Origin: Streptomyces flavofungini
GTDB taxonomy: Bacteria > Actinomycetota > Actinomycetes > Streptomycetales > Streptomycetaceae
DNA: 64,000 nucleotides
NCBI RefSeq assembly: GCF_030388665.1
Contig: NZ_CP128846.1
Location: 8,466,001-8,530,000 of the forward strand
Direction of reading: 5' to 3'
Shown: piece after piece, positions 3 through 6,329 of the stretch
Position numbering within the stretch: position 1 is the stretch's first letter
How the letters are laid out: every line of letters starts with the position of its first letter
Notes under the pieces: generated by a model
What the model was told of the DNA's origin: nothing
What the model saw: only the letters and a program-made list of their open reading frames with translations
Databases searched by the model: none
Made by a program: the position numbers and the translations under genes

Positions 3-512
3 CCGGAGCGCGAGGGCGCGCCCGCCACCCTGCGCTACTCGCTGTACCAGGAGGTGTACCAGGTCGGCGTGGGCCTGCGGGAACGCGAGCCGCTGGCCTT
101 CGCCGGCGATCCGGTCCCGCCGGGCGGGCTGTTGCTGCATGTGGCCGCGCGGCGGATCACGCTGTACTGGGGGCTGCCCGGCGCGGGAGTCGCGGGGGCG
201 GCGAGCCGGGCGGCGGACACGGGGGCGGACCGGGGGCCCGAGGCGCCGATGGGGGCCGGGACGGAGCGGGACGCCGGGCCGGACCCGGCGCACCGGGAGT
301 TCGGGACCCTGACCGATGTGCCCGAGGGCTACGTCTGGGTGTCCCTCGACGCCACGGGCGCCCTGCGCTGCCACCAGCGGCGGCCCCGCCGCCGCACCGT
401 GGCCGAACCCCTCGACCTGATCGACGCCGCACCCGGCCAGGTCTACGAGGAGGTCATGAGGTCGGGGCTGTCCTACGACGAGAACAAGGACCCCTTCAGT
501 GGCATCCTCTGA
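3..512 (+). CDS. hypothetical protein, 5'-truncated by window edge
   Basis: The reading frame is open from base 3, so the start lies outside the window. The visible 169 codons show no domain I recognise. The C-terminal third contains a short conserved-looking stretch (PEGYVWVSLDA) and ends DENKDPFSGIL. The stop overlaps the GTG start of the next gene by 14 bases, so the two are translationally coupled. It heads a co-directional run with VWA, PP2C and kinase genes and is probably an accessory of that phosphorylation unit (inference from context only). The first in-frame GTG inside the window, at 54, is unlikely to be the true start because coding-quality sequence continues upstream of it. Confidence 0.7.
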   Translation, partial: PEREGAPATLRYSLYQEVYQVGVGLREREPLAFAGDPVPPGGLLLHVAARRITLYWGLPGAGVAGAASRAADTGADRGPEAPMGAGTERDAGPDPAHREFGTLTDVPEGYVWVSLDATGALRCHQRRPRRRTVAEPLDLIDAAPGQVYEEVMRSGLSYDENKDPFSGIL

Positions 513-1467
513 CGCCAGGAAACCCGTCGAAGACGCCCGGCCCGAGGAGGCCCGCGCGCCGGGAACCCGCACCTCGGGAAGCGGCCCCGGGAGCGGCCCC
601 GACCGTGCCCCCGAAAGCGGCCCCGCCGAGGCCCCCGACGCCACGCCCGCCCCCCTCGTCCGCGCCCTCTGCGACGACCTCAGCACCGTCCTTGGCACCC
701 TGGTGGACCCCGCCGACCTGCACCCCCGCCACGACGGGGCCGCCGCGCCGCTCCTCGGCCTGGTGGGCGTGGCCGCCGCCGGGCCGCGCCAGGTCGCCTG
801 CCGACTGCTCGCCGAATGGGTACGGGCCGGCACGGTCGAGGCGGGCGAACAGCCCGAGCTGTGGGGGCCCTCCGCGGTCGACGTCGCCACCCTCCGGCTC
901 GGTGGGGAGCGGCTGCTGCCCGGCCTGACCCTCACCCCGCTGCCGTCGGGGCTGCCGCCGCGCGAGGCCGTGGAGCGCCTCCTGCCGACCGTCGCCGAAC
1001 TCCTCGGCGCCATGCGCCAGGTGGCCCTCGTCGACCACACCCGGGCCACCACCGTGCCGGGCTGGTCGGCCCGGCTGCGGCTGCTCGCCGAGTGCGACGC
1101 CCTCGGCCCGGCCGCGGCGGCCACCGGCGACCCGGGCGCCTGGGTGGTCGCCGCCCACCACCTGGCCGCGTCGGCGTTCGTGCCCGAGGCCGCCGAGGGC
1201 AGCGTCTGGACCCAGCTGATGGCGGCGGTGCGGACGCACGCCGTGCGCGCCCTCGCCGAACTGGGGGAGGCCAGGGAGGGCGAGGGCGAGCTGGACCGGC
1301 GTGGCTCCCACGACTTCACCGCGCTCGTCGACATGGAGCGCAGCGTGACGCTCGACGACCATCCCGCGCGTTCCGGCAACGTCCTCCAGGTCGTACGGCT
1401 GCCGCGGGAACGGGCCGGGCGGATGGAGAAGGCCCTGGTGCTGCTCGCCCCGAGGAGCGGCGGATGA
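499..1467 (+). CDS. hypothetical protein of the VWA/PP2C/kinase operon
   Basis: A 322-residue soluble protein starting at GTG 499, inside the 3' end of the preceding gene. Residues 1-55 are a low-complexity linker rich in Pro, Gly, Ser, Arg and Glu. The rest is predicted mostly helical with many leucines (for example LVRALCDDLSTVLGTL near residue 55) and no catalytic motif I can name. It ends with an ATGA overlap onto the VWA gene, which implies one polycistronic message. No signal peptide or membrane segment is visible. I do not recognise the family; context makes it a candidate scaffold or target of the neighbouring kinase-phosphatase pair. Confidence 0.75.
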   Translation: MASSDARKPVEDARPEEARAPGTRTSGSGPGSGPDRAPESGPAEAPDATPAPLVRALCDDLSTVLGTLVDPADLHPRHDGAAAPLLGLVGVAAAGPRQVACRLLAEWVRAGTVEAGEQPELWGPSAVDVATLRLGGERLLPGLTLTPLPSGLPPREAVERLLPTVAELLGAMRQVALVDHTRATTVPGWSARLRLLAECDALGPAAAATGDPGAWVVAAHHLAASAFVPEAAEGSVWTQLMAAVRTHAVRALAELGEAREGEGELDRRGSHDFTALVDMERSVTLDDHPARSGNVLQVVRLPRERAGRMEKALVLLAPRSGG

Positions 1468-2135
1468 ACGTCCTTCCGCTGTACGTCCTCGCCGACAGGT
1501 CCGGGTCCATGGCCGAGACCGCCGGGTCCGTCACCGCGATCGAGGTGGTGAACACCGTCCTGCGCGAACTCCTCGCGCGCCTCGCGAAGGACCCCACGAT
1601 CCGGCGGGCGGTCCGGCTCTCGGTGATCTCCTTCGCCGAGGACGCCCGCGTCGACCTGCCGCTCACCAGCCTGTCGTCGACGACGGCCGTCCCGGACCTG
1701 GAGGCCTCCGGGCCGACCTCGTTCGCGATGGTCTTCGAGGCCACCGCGCACACCGTCGCGCACGACCTGGCCGCGCTCGGCCCCGCGGCGCGGCCGCCGC
1801 TGGTGTTCATGCTCACCGACGGCCGCCCCACCGCCCACCGCGACCGCGCCGCAGGCTGGTACGCGGAGCATCAGGCGCTCCTCACCAGCGCGGGCCCGGA
1901 GCGGCGGGTCCTGCTGGTGCCCTACGGCTACGGCCGCGTCGACCCGCGCACCCTCGCGTCCATCGCCGCCGATCCGAGCGCCGCCTACCTCGCGGGACGC
2001 AGCGACTCGCCGGCGCAGGCCATCGAACGCTTCGCCGAGCTGGTCTTCGGCTCCGTCGCGCGCAGCGTGGCGATGGACTCCGAGCAGGTCGTGCAGCCGC
2101 CGGGCACGGAGCGGCCCTATGACCCGGACTACTGA
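1464..2135 (+). CDS. VWA domain protein, TerY-like
   Basis: A 223-residue von Willebrand factor A domain protein. The metal-ion-dependent adhesion site is intact: residues 11-15 read DRSGS (D-x-S-x-S), followed by a threonine in GPTSF and an aspartate in FMLTDGRPT. TerY proteins of tellurite-type stress systems have the same single-domain layout and length. The ATG at 1464 overlaps the upstream stop as ATGA and has GAGGAG before it, which is why the longer frame beginning at 816 is rejected. It is followed by PP2C and kinase genes, matching the VWA-phosphatase-kinase order of the TerY-P triad described in comparative genomics of Ter systems. The VWA domain is expected to bind a partner protein via a divalent metal. 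Confidence 0.85.
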   Translation: MNVLPLYVLADRSGSMAETAGSVTAIEVVNTVLRELLARLAKDPTIRRAVRLSVISFAEDARVDLPLTSLSSTTAVPDLEASGPTSFAMVFEATAHTVAHDLAALGPAARPPLVFMLTDGRPTAHRDRAAGWYAEHQALLTSAGPERRVLLVPYGYGRVDPRTLASIAADPSAAYLAGRSDSPAQAIERFAELVFGSVARSVAMDSEQVVQPPGTERPYDPDY

Positions 2136-2171
2136 CCGAGGACTTCCGACCATGGACGAGGACCACTGACC

Positions 2172-3062
2172 ATGTCCGACTTTCCGGCCGTCGACGCCAT
2201 GGACCGACCCTGGCACGAGCCCCCGCTGTTCACCGGTGACGCGGAGGCGGCCCTGCCGCTGCTCGCCTACGACGGCGGACAGGCGGGCGCGGTCACGGTG
2301 CGGGCGGGCGCGGCGGCGGCGGAGACCTGCCGTCCCCGGGACAACTGCAACGACGCCTTCGCCCTCTGGTCCGACGCGTCGACCGGCATCTGCTTCCTGG
2401 CCGTCGCGGACGGCGTGGGCCGCTCGGAGGACGCGGGCCGCGCCGCCCGCGCCGCCGCCCGGGTCGCGGTGACGGCGTTCCGCGCGCAGTGGCTCGCGGC
2501 GCCGGACCCCTCCGGCGACCGCCTCGCGGACCGGGTGCGCGAGACGGTCGCCGACGTGGCGGTCACCCTCGACAGGCAGTCCCAGCGGCGCACCGGTGGC
2601 GGGCACGGGTACGGCGAGTACCGCACGACGCTCGTCGTGGCGGCCCTGCCGACCCGGATCCCGCCGGGCGGCGCCGTCGCCGCGGTGGTCGCCCGCGTCG
2701 GCGACTCCACCGCGTGGCGGCTGCGCCCCGGCTTCCTCGCACCCGTCTTCCCCGGCCGGGCCGAGGACCTGACACCCACCGCGGCCCTGCCCGGCAACTA
2801 CGCGGCGCTGGAGATCCAGGTCCTCGACCTCGGCGACGGCGAGGTCCTTGCCCTGACCACCGACGGGCTGGCCCGCGACGGCCGCGACGAGCAGGTGCGG
2901 ACCTTCCTGGGGCGGATCTGGGCGACCCCGCCGACCCCGCTCGCATTCCTGGGGTCCCTGGCCGTACGGCGCAACGACCGCAGCGACGACCGGGCCGCAG
3001 CCGTCGCCTGGCTCGGCCACTACGAAGCGCCCGACGGCACGTTCGGTGCCGGCGCGGGGTGA
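2172..3062 (+). CDS. PP2C-family protein phosphatase
   Basis: A 296-residue serine/threonine phosphatase-like protein. Recognisable PP2C elements are DNCNDAFAL (residues 57-65), the metal-binding AVADGVG (77-83), RVGDSTAW, LTTDGLA and the C-terminal DDRAA aspartates. These supply the usual metal-coordinating acidic residues, so it is probably active. It has no membrane segment. It lies 36 bases after the VWA gene and its TGA abuts the GTG of the kinase-like gene. It probably reverses phosphorylation by that kinase (inference from the TerY-P arrangement). Confidence 0.85.
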   Translation: MSDFPAVDAMDRPWHEPPLFTGDAEAALPLLAYDGGQAGAVTVRAGAAAAETCRPRDNCNDAFALWSDASTGICFLAVADGVGRSEDAGRAARAAARVAVTAFRAQWLAAPDPSGDRLADRVRETVADVAVTLDRQSQRRTGGGHGYGEYRTTLVVAALPTRIPPGGAVAAVVARVGDSTAWRLRPGFLAPVFPGRAEDLTPTAALPGNYAALEIQVLDLGDGEVLALTTDGLARDGRDEQVRTFLGRIWATPPTPLAFLGSLAVRRNDRSDDRAAAVAWLGHYEAPDGTFGAGAG

Positions 3063-4796
3063 GTGGCGTTGGACGTGACCCCCGGCTGGTGGCTCGTGCT
3101 CGCCGTGGCCGCCGCCCAGCTCCTCGCCGAAGTGGTGCGCCGCGCGATGGACGGCGCGGCGGCCGACGCGCAGCGGTTCGGCGCCGCGGCCGCGGAGCTG
3201 CGGCGGCGCGCGGACACCAGCGGTTCCACGACGCGGGGCGCCGAGCTCGCCGGACACGCCCACCGGCTGCGCGGCCTGCGATGGCGGGCCCGGCGCCGCC
3301 GCGCCGCCGGGTGGCTGCTGCTCACCGCGGTCTGGGCGGGCAGCCAGACGGCGTGCTGGCGGTGGGACGTCAACGCGCGCTGGACGGAGGCGAGGCACTG
3401 GGACGAGGACGTCCTCGTCGGCATCGCGGTCGGCGGCCCGGCCGTCGCGCTGCTCGCGCTGTGGGCGACGGCGCGCATCGCGGGGCAACCGGCGGCCCTC
3501 GACCGGTCGGTGGCCTTCGTCGTGTACGTGGCGGCGGGTGCGCTCCTGGTGGCCGGGGCCGCGGGGGCGGACGGCGCGGCCGAGGGCACGACGGCGAGCG
3601 CGGTCGTGATCGCCGCGTCGCCGGTGGTGCGCCGGGTCGTGGCGACCGTGCCGCGGCGCGCGGGCCCGGTGCCGCTCAGCGCGGAGGCCGCGGCCCTGGT
3701 GGACACGATCGACCCGCCCGCGCGGCTCCCGCACGGGGCACCGCCCGCCACCCCGTTCCCGGCTGCGTCCGTGCGCCGGTCCGACACCCTGCCCGACATC
3801 CCGCTCGGGTCCCTGGCGCACTCGTTCCGCATGCCCCCGCCGGCCCCGGCACCCACGCCCGCGAAGCCGCTCGGGACGCCGGAGAGCAGCTGGTCACGGC
3901 AGGGTTTCGGGCCCGCCCCACCGGCCCACGGCTACCCGATGATCGACCTCTTGCCCTGGGCAGGCCTGCGGCGGGGAGGCCCCCCGCCCGGGGCGCCGCC
4001 GCACATCTGCCGGGCCCACGCCGAAGGCTCCGCGGAGGAGTTCCTGTTCAAGCAGTTCGGCGTGGAGCGCGCGGCGGGCCCACCAGCCGGCGGGGAACGC
4101 CAGCGCAACCCCGTCCGCGCCCTCGCCCCGTACCGCGAACTCCTCTCCCGGGTCGGCACGTTGCCCACGCCCCGGCGCCGCGCCGCCGACCGCGTCCTGC
4201 TGTGGCCGCGCGCGGTTGTGGGCGACGGCGAGCGGGCCGTGGGCGTCCTGTACCCGCCGCTCGCGGCCCCGTTCCTGCTCCGCGAGGGCGGCGCGCAGAC
4301 CGGCGACCACCTCCTCGCCGAGGAGCCGGACTTCGTCGGCTGCCAGGTGCCCTCGTCCCGGCAGCGTGCCGAACTGCTCCTGGACGTGGTGTCGGCCCAC
4401 GCCCTGCTGCACGACCTGGGGCTCGCCCACGGCGACACCAACTGGAAGAACTTCGTGTACGGCGTCGAGGAGGGGCGGGGGCGCGGACGGCTCATCGACA
4501 TCGACAGCGTGACGTCCCTGGACGACCCGCGGCCCCTCCTGATGCATCAGCCGGACTGGGGCGACGACCCGCGCATGCCGCCCCTGGTCCGGGACGTCCA
4601 CCGGGTGGCGCTCCTGGTCGCGCGCCTCGCCGGGCCCGTACCCGACTGGGACAGGCAACAGCCGCCCGCCGAGGGCGAGTTCTGGTTCACTCCGGCGCTG
4701 CGGCAGCTCACCCGTGGCGCCCTGGAAAGGCCCGAGGAGGCCACGGCGGCGGATTTCACCGAGGCCCTGACGGCGGCGTTGCGCGGCCGGGGCTGA
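3063..4796 (+). CDS. membrane-anchored atypical protein kinase
   Basis: A 577-residue protein starting at GTG 3063, immediately after the phosphatase TGA. The N-terminal 175 residues carry about four hydrophobic segments (WWLVLAVAAAQLLAEVV, AGWLLLTAVWAG, GIAVGGPAVALLALWA, FVVYVAAGALLVAGAAG). A Pro-rich linker follows, then a C-terminal kinase-like domain. The catalytic loop reads HGDTNWKNF and the metal-binding position is LIDID instead of DFG. A lysine in EEFLFKQFG is a possible ATP-binding residue. The divergence places it with the unusual kinases of TerY-P triads rather than PknB-type kinases. It is the last gene of the run and converges on the pseudo-peptidase gene 60 bases away. Confidence 0.75.
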   Translation: MALDVTPGWWLVLAVAAAQLLAEVVRRAMDGAAADAQRFGAAAAELRRRADTSGSTTRGAELAGHAHRLRGLRWRARRRRAAGWLLLTAVWAGSQTACWRWDVNARWTEARHWDEDVLVGIAVGGPAVALLALWATARIAGQPAALDRSVAFVVYVAAGALLVAGAAGADGAAEGTTASAVVIAASPVVRRVVATVPRRAGPVPLSAEAAALVDTIDPPARLPHGAPPATPFPAASVRRSDTLPDIPLGSLAHSFRMPPPAPAPTPAKPLGTPESSWSRQGFGPAPPAHGYPMIDLLPWAGLRRGGPPPGAPPHICRAHAEGSAEEFLFKQFGVERAAGPPAGGERQRNPVRALAPYRELLSRVGTLPTPRRRAADRVLLWPRAVVGDGERAVGVLYPPLAAPFLLREGGAQTGDHLLAEEPDFVGCQVPSSRQRAELLLDVVSAHALLHDLGLAHGDTNWKNFVYGVEEGRGRGRLIDIDSVTSLDDPRPLLMHQPDWGDDPRMPPLVRDVHRVALLVARLAGPVPDWDRQQPPAEGEFWFTPALRQLTRGALERPEEATAADFTEALTAALRGRG

Positions 4797-4856: not shown

Positions 4857-6329
4857 CTATCGCTCCGGCACCCGCACCCCCACCCGCTGCCACGCCTCCA
4901 GCACGGCCCGGTGCTCGGCGCTCCCCTCGCCGTACCTGCTCACGGCCGCCACCGCCGTGAAGCGCGCCCAGTCCTCGAACAGCAGACCACCGCCGACCGC
5001 GTGCACGGTCAGCGCGTCCCACCAGATCATCCCGGCGCGCTCCCACGCGTGCCCGCCCAGGCGCTCGGCCACGAGGTAGAAGGCGTGGCCGGGAATGCCG
5101 CTGTTGATGTGGACGCCGCCGTTGTCACGGCCCGTACGGACGTAGTCGTCCATGGTCGCCGCCTGCGGGTCCTTGCCGAGGACGTCGTCGTCGTATGCCG
5201 TACCGGGCGACTTCAGGGAGCGGAGCCCGACGCCGCGGACGCCCGGGGCGAGCAGTCCGGCGCCGACCACCCAGTCCGCCTCCTCGACGCCGAGGCCGAG
5301 GGTGTACTGCTTGACGAGCTGGCCGAAGACGTCGCAGATCGAAACCGAGAGGGCCCCGCTCTGCCCTGCGTGGGAGAAGAGCGCCATCATCTCGCGTACG
5401 CCCATCCAGATGCCGCCGGCGATGACCTCGACGCACTGGCTGAACCGCTCGAAGACCGTGCCGTCCCCGTCACCGAGGACCAGCAGTTCCCCGTTCCAGT
5501 ACATGTTGCTGAAGCCGCCGCCGTAGTGGACGACCGCGGTCATGGGCCGCCGGACCAGGGGGTCGCGGCCCAGGACGGCCCGCGCGAAGACGGAGGTGGC
5601 CAGCATCGCGTCGTACGCCTCGTCCACAGAGGCGTCGCCGGTCGGCTCCTGCCCGGTGCGCCGGGCCACGGCGAGCCCCGTGGTCTCGCGGCTGTGCCGG
5701 GCGTCGTACACGACGTGGTCGGCGTCCTCGGTGCCGGCCGCCTCCGAGGCCGACGGCAGCGGCACGGGCTCGCTGACGAGGCGGGCCACGTCCTCCGGGG
5801 CGAGACGCGCCTGGAGCGCGAGCGGGACGACGCCCTGGAGCAGCCAGGTGAGCGCGCCGGTCTCCTCGGCGGGCGCCGGGTGCGAGCCGTCGAGCAGGCC
5901 CGTCGCCTCGCGGACGAGCTCCGGAGGGATCCGCGCGATCGCGGCGACCTCTTCGAGGGCCCGCACCAACTGGCGCACCGCCCCGCTGAGGAGCCGGTCG
6001 CGCACGGCGTCGCTCAGCTCGCCCGCCGCGAGGACGGGGGCGGTCTCCAGCGCCTCGTACCCCTGGTGCACGGCGACGAAGGCCGCGCTGCCGCGCCTGC
6101 GGGCGATGACCGCGGCCTGCTCGTCCCACGCGGTCCGCGACAGGGCGGGCGCCGTCCAGTGTCCGGTCTGCCGGAAGTAGGCGATGGCCGCGCTGTTCCT
6201 GGCCAGCTCGGCGTAGATGAGGCGGGCGGCGGTGCGGGTGTTGCTGCGGTGGCTCAGCATCGCGCCGCCCCCGCCGAGCAGACCACCGCCCACGGTGGCG
6301 ATGACGGTACTGATCAGACCGCTGTCCAT
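4857..6329 (-). CDS. thermolysin-fold (M4) pseudopeptidase, membrane-anchored
   Basis: A 490-residue protein. From about residue 235 it follows the M4 thermolysin fold: the substrate-binding stretch SNMYWNGELLVLGDGDG (274-290), FSQ, GALSVSICDVFG (325-336) and DNGGVHINSGI (402-412), which keeps the active-site histidine (H407). The zinc site is gone. Where M4 enzymes have HExxH, residues 305-309 read GGIWM, and the third ligand glutamate is V329. It also lacks a secretion signal and PepSY/FTP propeptide, having instead a Gly-rich hydrophobic segment (residues 4-24) and a helical region. It should be catalytically dead and may be a binding protein. ATG 6329 has GGGGAGG 11 bases upstream; an in-frame start at 6368 is possible. 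Confidence 0.75.
   Translation of the reverse strand: MDSGLISTVIATVGGGLLGGGGAMLSHRSNTRTAARLIYAELARNSAAIAYFRQTGHWTAPALSRTAWDEQAAVIARRRGSAAFVAVHQGYEALETAPVLAAGELSDAVRDRLLSGAVRQLVRALEEVAAIARIPPELVREATGLLDGSHPAPAEETGALTWLLQGVVPLALQARLAPEDVARLVSEPVPLPSASEAAGTEDADHVVYDARHSRETTGLAVARRTGQEPTGDASVDEAYDAMLATSVFARAVLGRDPLVRRPMTAVVHYGGGFSNMYWNGELLVLGDGDGTVFERFSQCVEVIAGGIWMGVREMMALFSHAGQSGALSVSICDVFGQLVKQYTLGLGVEEADWVVGAGLLAPGVRGVGLRSLKSPGTAYDDDVLGKDPQAATMDDYVRTGRDNGGVHINSGIPGHAFYLVAERLGGHAWERAGMIWWDALTVHAVGGGLLFEDWARFTAVAAVSRYGEGSAEHRAVLEAWQRVGVRVPER

What the first reader, a model, noticed from the sequence alone, without database searches (positions are those of the whole stretch)
4857..6329. A thermolysin-fold protein with every zinc ligand lost
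The M4 core is well conserved (WNGELLVLGDGDG, CDVFG, DNGGVHINSGI with its histidine), yet HExxH is replaced by GGIWM (residues 305-309) and the third ligand Glu by V329. Signal peptide and propeptide are replaced by a Gly-rich membrane segment and a helical domain. The reading frame is intact with normal codon bias, so this looks like a maintained pseudoenzyme rather than decay. It may bind peptides or sense a protease substrate from the membrane. It ends 60 bases from a VWA-PP2C-kinase run.
Basis: partly seen in the sequence, partly recalled or inferred. Interest (0 to 1): 0.78.

Follow-up and report, generated by a model that had tools for sequence, protein, structure and literature searches.

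The report
Zinc-less protealysin-type pseudoprotease family
A Streptomyces gene encodes a protease-shaped protein that has lost every residue needed to hold the catalytic zinc; relatives show losses of the same kind several times over while the rest of the protein is kept, so it probably works by binding proteins rather than cutting them.

The parts
4857..6329 (-). CDS, 490 aa, N-anchored protealysin-type pseudoprotease
6261..6317 (-). Gly/Ala-rich hydrophobic segment, residues 5-23 (best 19-residue Kyte-Doolittle mean 1.44 here; mean 1.73 over the 55 of 60 that could be tested); probable membrane anchor, C-side flank more positive than N-side in 55 of 55
   Evidence: hydropathy inference, borderline; modelled at pLDDT under 50
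5886..6251 (-). Helical domain, residues 27-148 (RTAARLIYAEL motif), modelled as a helical bundle; no Pfam match
5769..5834 (-). Vestige of the protealysin propeptide PPL motif, residues 166-187 (GVVPLALQARLA...)
   Evidence: alignment with canonical proteases; motif named in PMC6778150 (passages)
4872..5729 (-). M4 (thermolysin/protealysin) fold, residues 201-486
5403..5417 (-). GGIWM, residues 305-309, in place of HExxH
5343..5345 (-). V329 in place of the third zinc ligand Glu166
5109..5111 (-). H407, equivalent of thermolysin His231, retained
3063..4796 (+). Kinase-like gene (only a sub-cut-off Pfam match, Kdo 0.0037) ending 60 bases from the pseudoprotease stop, convergent; not regarded as part of the system

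Best explanation
The protein is a selectively maintained pseudoprotease of the protealysin branch of family M4. It descends from an N-anchored, catalytically competent protealysin-like protease. In Streptomyces the zinc site was dismantled and the fold and cleft were kept. An N-terminal hydrophobic segment probably tethers it to the inner face of the membrane, with the helical and M4-like domains in the cytoplasm. It most likely works by holding a peptide or protein in the old substrate cleft without cutting it, as a trap, competitor or adaptor. The first candidate partners are substrates of the genome's own protealysin-like protease and the emfourin inhibitor, which docks on protealysin's active-site region. 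Shown: predicted fold, loss of ligands, family-wide pattern, purifying selection, conserved cleft residues, presence of protease plus emfourin in the same genomes. Inferred: membrane location and topology, absence of zinc, ligand binding, identity of the partner.
Against: Anchor hydropathy is borderline (1.44 for this protein) and residues 1-26 model at pLDDT under 50. E143 and H231 are not universal in the degenerate set, and in other subclades the replacement letters vary row by row, so the cleft may not be under uniform constraint. The 301-334 stretch has higher entropy than the M4 lobes on either side (1.80 against 1.56 and 1.26) and dN/dS 0.28-0.95 in the seven pairs where it is defined (few sites). 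Two of 60 are truncated or frameshifted in the M4 part (P0004, P0057), a sign of occasional decay. The gene is rare (6 of 392 genomes) and no neighbour is shared by all loci. No emfourin match lies near any of the six genes, and protealysin-like proteases are near-universal in the genus (186 of 199 genomes match at 1e-60), so co-occurrence says nothing. No binding was tested.
Confidence: 0.55

Rival explanations
1. It is a decaying protease: the M4 part is no longer used and only the N-terminal anchor domain is functional.
For: The anchor domain evolves more slowly than the M4 part in seven of eight pairs (for example dN/dS 0.18-0.31 in the three alboflavus-group pairs and 0.00-0.10 among L048/L049/L050), and two of 60 members are truncated or frameshifted in the M4 part.
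Against: M4 domain dN/dS is 0.27-0.31 in six of eight pairs and 0.52-0.53 in two against a neutral 1.03; against L047 the M4 part (0.27) is slower than the anchor domain (0.38); 40 of 44 keep N112 and R203; the fold is modelled at high confidence.
Confidence: 0.12
2. It is a decoy or anti-inhibitor that titrates emfourin and so regulates the genome's own protealysin-like protease, a specific form of the best explanation.
For: All 6 genomes searched carry emfourin with an M4 gene directly beside it; emfourin binds protealysin's active-site region 1:1 (PMC9505478 passages); the pseudoprotease has no emfourin of its own next door.
Against: Canonical proteases are near-universal in the genus while the pseudoprotease is in 6 of 392; no interface data; ligand-site letters differ between subclades.
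Confidence: 0.2
3. It belongs functionally to the adjacent VWA-PP2C-kinase gene run, as a phospho-regulated or defence-associated effector.
For: 60-base distance; same arrangement in S. alboflavus and S. flavofungini.
Against: Convergent transcription; no match to the VWA, PP2C or kinase-like proteins (tblastn, E 1e-5) in the fetched stretches of the 10 other named loci, up to 10 kb on each side, some contigs shorter; this VWA protein is in 1 of 392 genomes at 1e-30, the pseudoprotease in 6 of 392; only weak PADLOC matches (TerY 0.038, MkoA 0.091).
Confidence: 0.05
4. It kept or gained another catalytic chemistry in the old cleft.
For: E143 is kept in 31 of 44 and H231 in 35 of 44 degenerate members.
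Against: This protein lacks E143 too; no alternative metal or nucleophile set stands out in the active-site columns; letters differ by subclade.
Confidence: 0.05

Closest known systems
Protealysin (Serratia proteamaculans; PDB 2vqx) and protealysin-like proteases, MEROPS M4
   Different: No zinc ligands, no catalytic Glu; extra N-terminal hydrophobic segment and helical domain; no adjacent emfourin gene
N-anchored protealysin-like proteases with intact HExxH (e.g. Actinomadura scrupuli P0041, Spirillospora P0037)
   Same: Same full architecture, including the RTAARLIYAEL domain
   Different: Complete HExxH + Glu; basal in the tree
Metallopeptidase pseudopeptidases reviewed in PMC11266112 (e.g. 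Gone early, M13; FtsHi, M41; alpha-MPP, M16)
   Same: Zinc ligands lost, fold kept, cleft or surface reused for binding; Gone early is also membrane-anchored
   Different: Other families, mostly eukaryotic; the words thermolysin and gluzincin do not occur in its main text; abstract, term passages and section 13 seen, not the rest

Membership tests
Peptidase family M4 (structural membership) | Sequence match to Peptidase_M4 and M4_C above the curated cut-off | tested here: met
   137.8 vs 24.4 bits and 30.2 vs 22.4 bits
Peptidase family M4 (structural membership) | Thermolysin fold | tested here: met
Active M4 metallopeptidase | HExxH plus third-ligand Glu | tested here: not met
   GGIWM and V329
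Active M4 metallopeptidase | Zinc content and proteolytic activity | not testable with these tools
   needs protein
Protealysin-like subgroup | Closest to protealysin rather than to secreted thermolysins | tested here: met
   2vqx 5.5e-78, next solved sequence 1.1e-27
Protealysin-like subgroup | Short PPL-motif propeptide | tested here: inconclusive
   aligned vestige: P at 169 in 45 of 60 (119 of 120 canonical), P at 170 in 17 of 60 (119 of 120), L at 173 in 43 of 60 (119 of 120). Pfam PLN_propep not reported at E 1. A loose regular expression matched 48 of 60, but 30 of 60 after shuffling, so it says little
Protealysin-like subgroup | Emfourin encoded alongside | tested here: not met
   the genome's only emfourin match lies at the canonical protease, G000:C1:6295414-6295650
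TerY-P-like (VWA-PP2C-kinase) defence system as the gene's home | Linkage kept in relatives | tested here: not met
Four-helix-bundle sensor domains (chemoreceptor type) for the N-terminal domain | Fold match clearly above other helical bundles | tested here: inconclusive

The most novel reading that the evidence does not exclude
A membrane-tethered branch of bacterial protealysins has turned into pseudoproteases at least four times, and the Streptomyces clade uses them as non-cleaving traps that regulate a cytosolic protease-inhibitor (protealysin-emfourin) circuit, a bacterial counterpart of membrane pseudoproteases that control their active cousins.
Probability: 0.18. Interest if true: 0.75.

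Novelty: new variant of a known kind. Interest (0 to 1): 0.55.

Why it matters
These genes carry names such as 'M4 family metallopeptidase' or 'neutral metalloproteinase' in public records, although many lack the residues to bind catalytic zinc. The family offers a graded natural series: intact, Glu lost but ligands kept, one ligand left, none. It shows repeated loss of catalysis in one architecture, which makes the question of what pseudoproteases are kept for directly testable in bacteria. No M4 pseudoprotease stood out in the listings of the literature searches run here.

Tried and rejected
Local decay: rejected. VWA-PP2C-kinase partnership: rejected as a general rule. Phage or plasmid carriage of the anchored form: the full protein matches 80 plasmid records and 16 phage records, all under 60% identity. 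The three plasmid places that cover at least 80% are Bacillus velezensis M4 genes at 27% identity (60 of 80 records listed), and the anchor domain alone has no match in the plasmids; it was not run alone against the phages, where no place covers 80% (10 of 16 listed). Four of these records were fetched, and all four are protealysin-like proteases with HExxH and without the anchor domain. The N-terminal domain on other proteins: none found. Two class-wide searches found only the window's own genome, 1 of 394 and 1 of 393, so the DNA neighbourhood of the intact members could not be read. Fold of the N-terminal domain: no firm match. Papers: search listings only, except passages of PMC9505478 and PMC6778150 and, of PMC11266112, abstract and outline, term passages and section 13. 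The names TerY-P and the thermolysin residue numbers are recalled, as is the positive-inside rule.

An early residue mapping was off by one for D226 and H231 and used a wrong-strand translation of the own protease; both were corrected, and the counts for those columns come.

Full report

A family, not one oddity. Homology searches found the same architecture many times. With a profile of the N-terminal domain, 60 proteins carry it: the query and 59 of 181 fetched. Of these 60, 16 have complete HExxH + Glu and 44 do not. Zinc ligands kept: three in 18, one in 10, none in 32. Of 120 comparison proteins without the domain (119 fetched plus the genome's own protease; three short family members, P0043, P0047 and P0049, set aside), all 120 keep the three ligands and 119 the Glu. 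These 120 are the best-scoring hits of two searches, not a random sample.

Evolution. A tree of 75 rows (60 family members minus P0057, dropped for too few columns, plus the three short members and 13 canonical rows) was built with the ligand region left out. Intact members are basal and paraphyletic; a 42-row degenerate clade has support 100/99. Of its 42 rows, 29 carry an organism name and all 29 are Streptomyces; of the 16 intact members two are named, Spirillospora and Actinomadura. Four degenerate rows (P0050, P0053, P0055, P0067) fall outside that clade; the fewest changes of state are four. AU tests reject one clade of all 46 degenerate rows in the tree (p 1e-81) and of 45 without P0050 (p 9e-4). 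The groups were chosen after seeing the tree, several rows have long branches, and the branch joining P0055 and P0067 to the Actinomadura group is weak (93/42). P0024, inside the clade, keeps all three ligands but not the Glu, so ligand loss inside the clade may itself have happened more than once.

Selection. In the 44 degenerate members the counts kept are N112 40, R203 40, D170 39, D226 35, H231 35, E143 31, but H142 3, H146 11, E166 2. Replacements are uniform in three subclades (GGxxM 5 of 5; SExxP 5 of 5; AExxR-T 5 of 5) and differ between them; in others, such as the six-row groups around P0013 and P0015 and the rows around P0005, they vary. Trp at position 308 is in 27 of 44 degenerate, 0 of 16 intact (F, S or C there) and 0 of 120 canonical proteins. 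Nei-Gojobori dN/dS over the whole gene is 0.22-0.50 in 8 pairs: 0.30 and 0.31 for this gene against the two close species, 0.49 between those two, and 0.50 for L042-L045. The same two comparisons give 0.09-0.16 for VWA, 0.20-0.29 for PP2C and 0.43-0.45 for the kinase-like gene; the 322-aa unknown gives 0.50 in one, so the gene is of middling constraint. A neutral simulation with 130 substitutions gave 1.03 (5-95% 0.72-1.43), and no stop in 13% of runs, so the open frame alone is weak evidence and the dN/dS is the argument. The active-site stretch 301-334 is not more constrained than the rest. P0004 (frameshifted M4 part) and P0057 (truncated) are exceptions.

Surroundings. The stop is 60 bases from the stop of the kinase-like gene on the other strand. 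Matches to the neighbours VWA, PP2C and kinase occur only at the S. alboflavus and S. flavofungini loci among 12 named loci (up to 10 kb on each side, some contigs shorter, L044 only 4.8 kb in all). Across 392 Streptomyces genomes the VWA protein is in 1 at 1e-30 and the pseudoprotease's anchor domain in 6. Two loci (L042, L045) share flanking genes although their proteins are far apart. No operon is shared by all loci.

Possible partner circuit. The genome has a canonical protealysin-like protease (HELTH) with emfourin beside it, its only emfourin match. All six genomes with the pseudoprotease have emfourin, each next to an M4 gene and none on the contig of the pseudoprotease except in the window's own genome, where it lies about 2.2 million bases away. 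Passages of PMC9505478 state that emfourin binds the active-site region of protealysin 1:1 and that the two genes share an operon in Serratia. Since canonical matches are near-universal in the genus (186 of 199 at 1e-60), this is a candidate, not evidence.

Verdict. Observation confirmed; maintained pseudoprotease well supported; membrane tether likely; ligand-binding function plausible and untested; neighbour link rejected as a general feature. Literature: searches listed no description of an M4 pseudoprotease family; only listings were seen for most papers, searches listed 20 of 33 and 20 of 34, and most subscription papers are not in that library.

Noticed in passing
window 3-4796 (+), continuing upstream (L052:5643-14796): A gene run: a dynamin-like protein (Dynamin_N 1.3e-5, 25.7 bits, just under the cut-off of 27), a 967-aa unknown, a 322-aa unknown, VWA, PP2C and a weakly kinase-like protein; by its VWA in 1 of 392 genomes, and seen in S. 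alboflavus and S. flavofungini; only weak PADLOC matches.
   Followed up: partly
P0176 (metagenome protein): A protealysin-like protease and its inhibitor emfourin fused in one polypeptide (Pfam M4, M4_C and Emfourin all above cut-off).
   Followed up: partly
L067 (Streptomyces phage Quantum gene 9); similar matches in other Streptomyces phages: A large Streptomyces phage encodes a small protealysin-like M4 protease with intact HExxH and a PP motif near its start.
   Followed up: partly
L068:2890-4409 (linear plasmid of Streptomyces sp. HUAS 14-6): A protealysin-like protease and an annotated emfourin side by side on a plasmid.
   Followed up: no
P0024 and P0050: HTxxH and HNxxH forms with all three zinc ligands but no catalytic Glu: possible zinc-binding, non-catalytic intermediates.
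   Followed up: no
P0004 and P0057: Two family members are frameshifted or truncated in the M4 part; another S. alboflavus record (P0003, L040) is intact, so P0004 could be decay or sequencing error.
   Followed up: no
L051:3768-5108: S. glomeratus carries an intact (HELTH) protealysin-like protease about 5 kb from its pseudoprotease; its genome's one emfourin match lies on another contig.
   Followed up: partly
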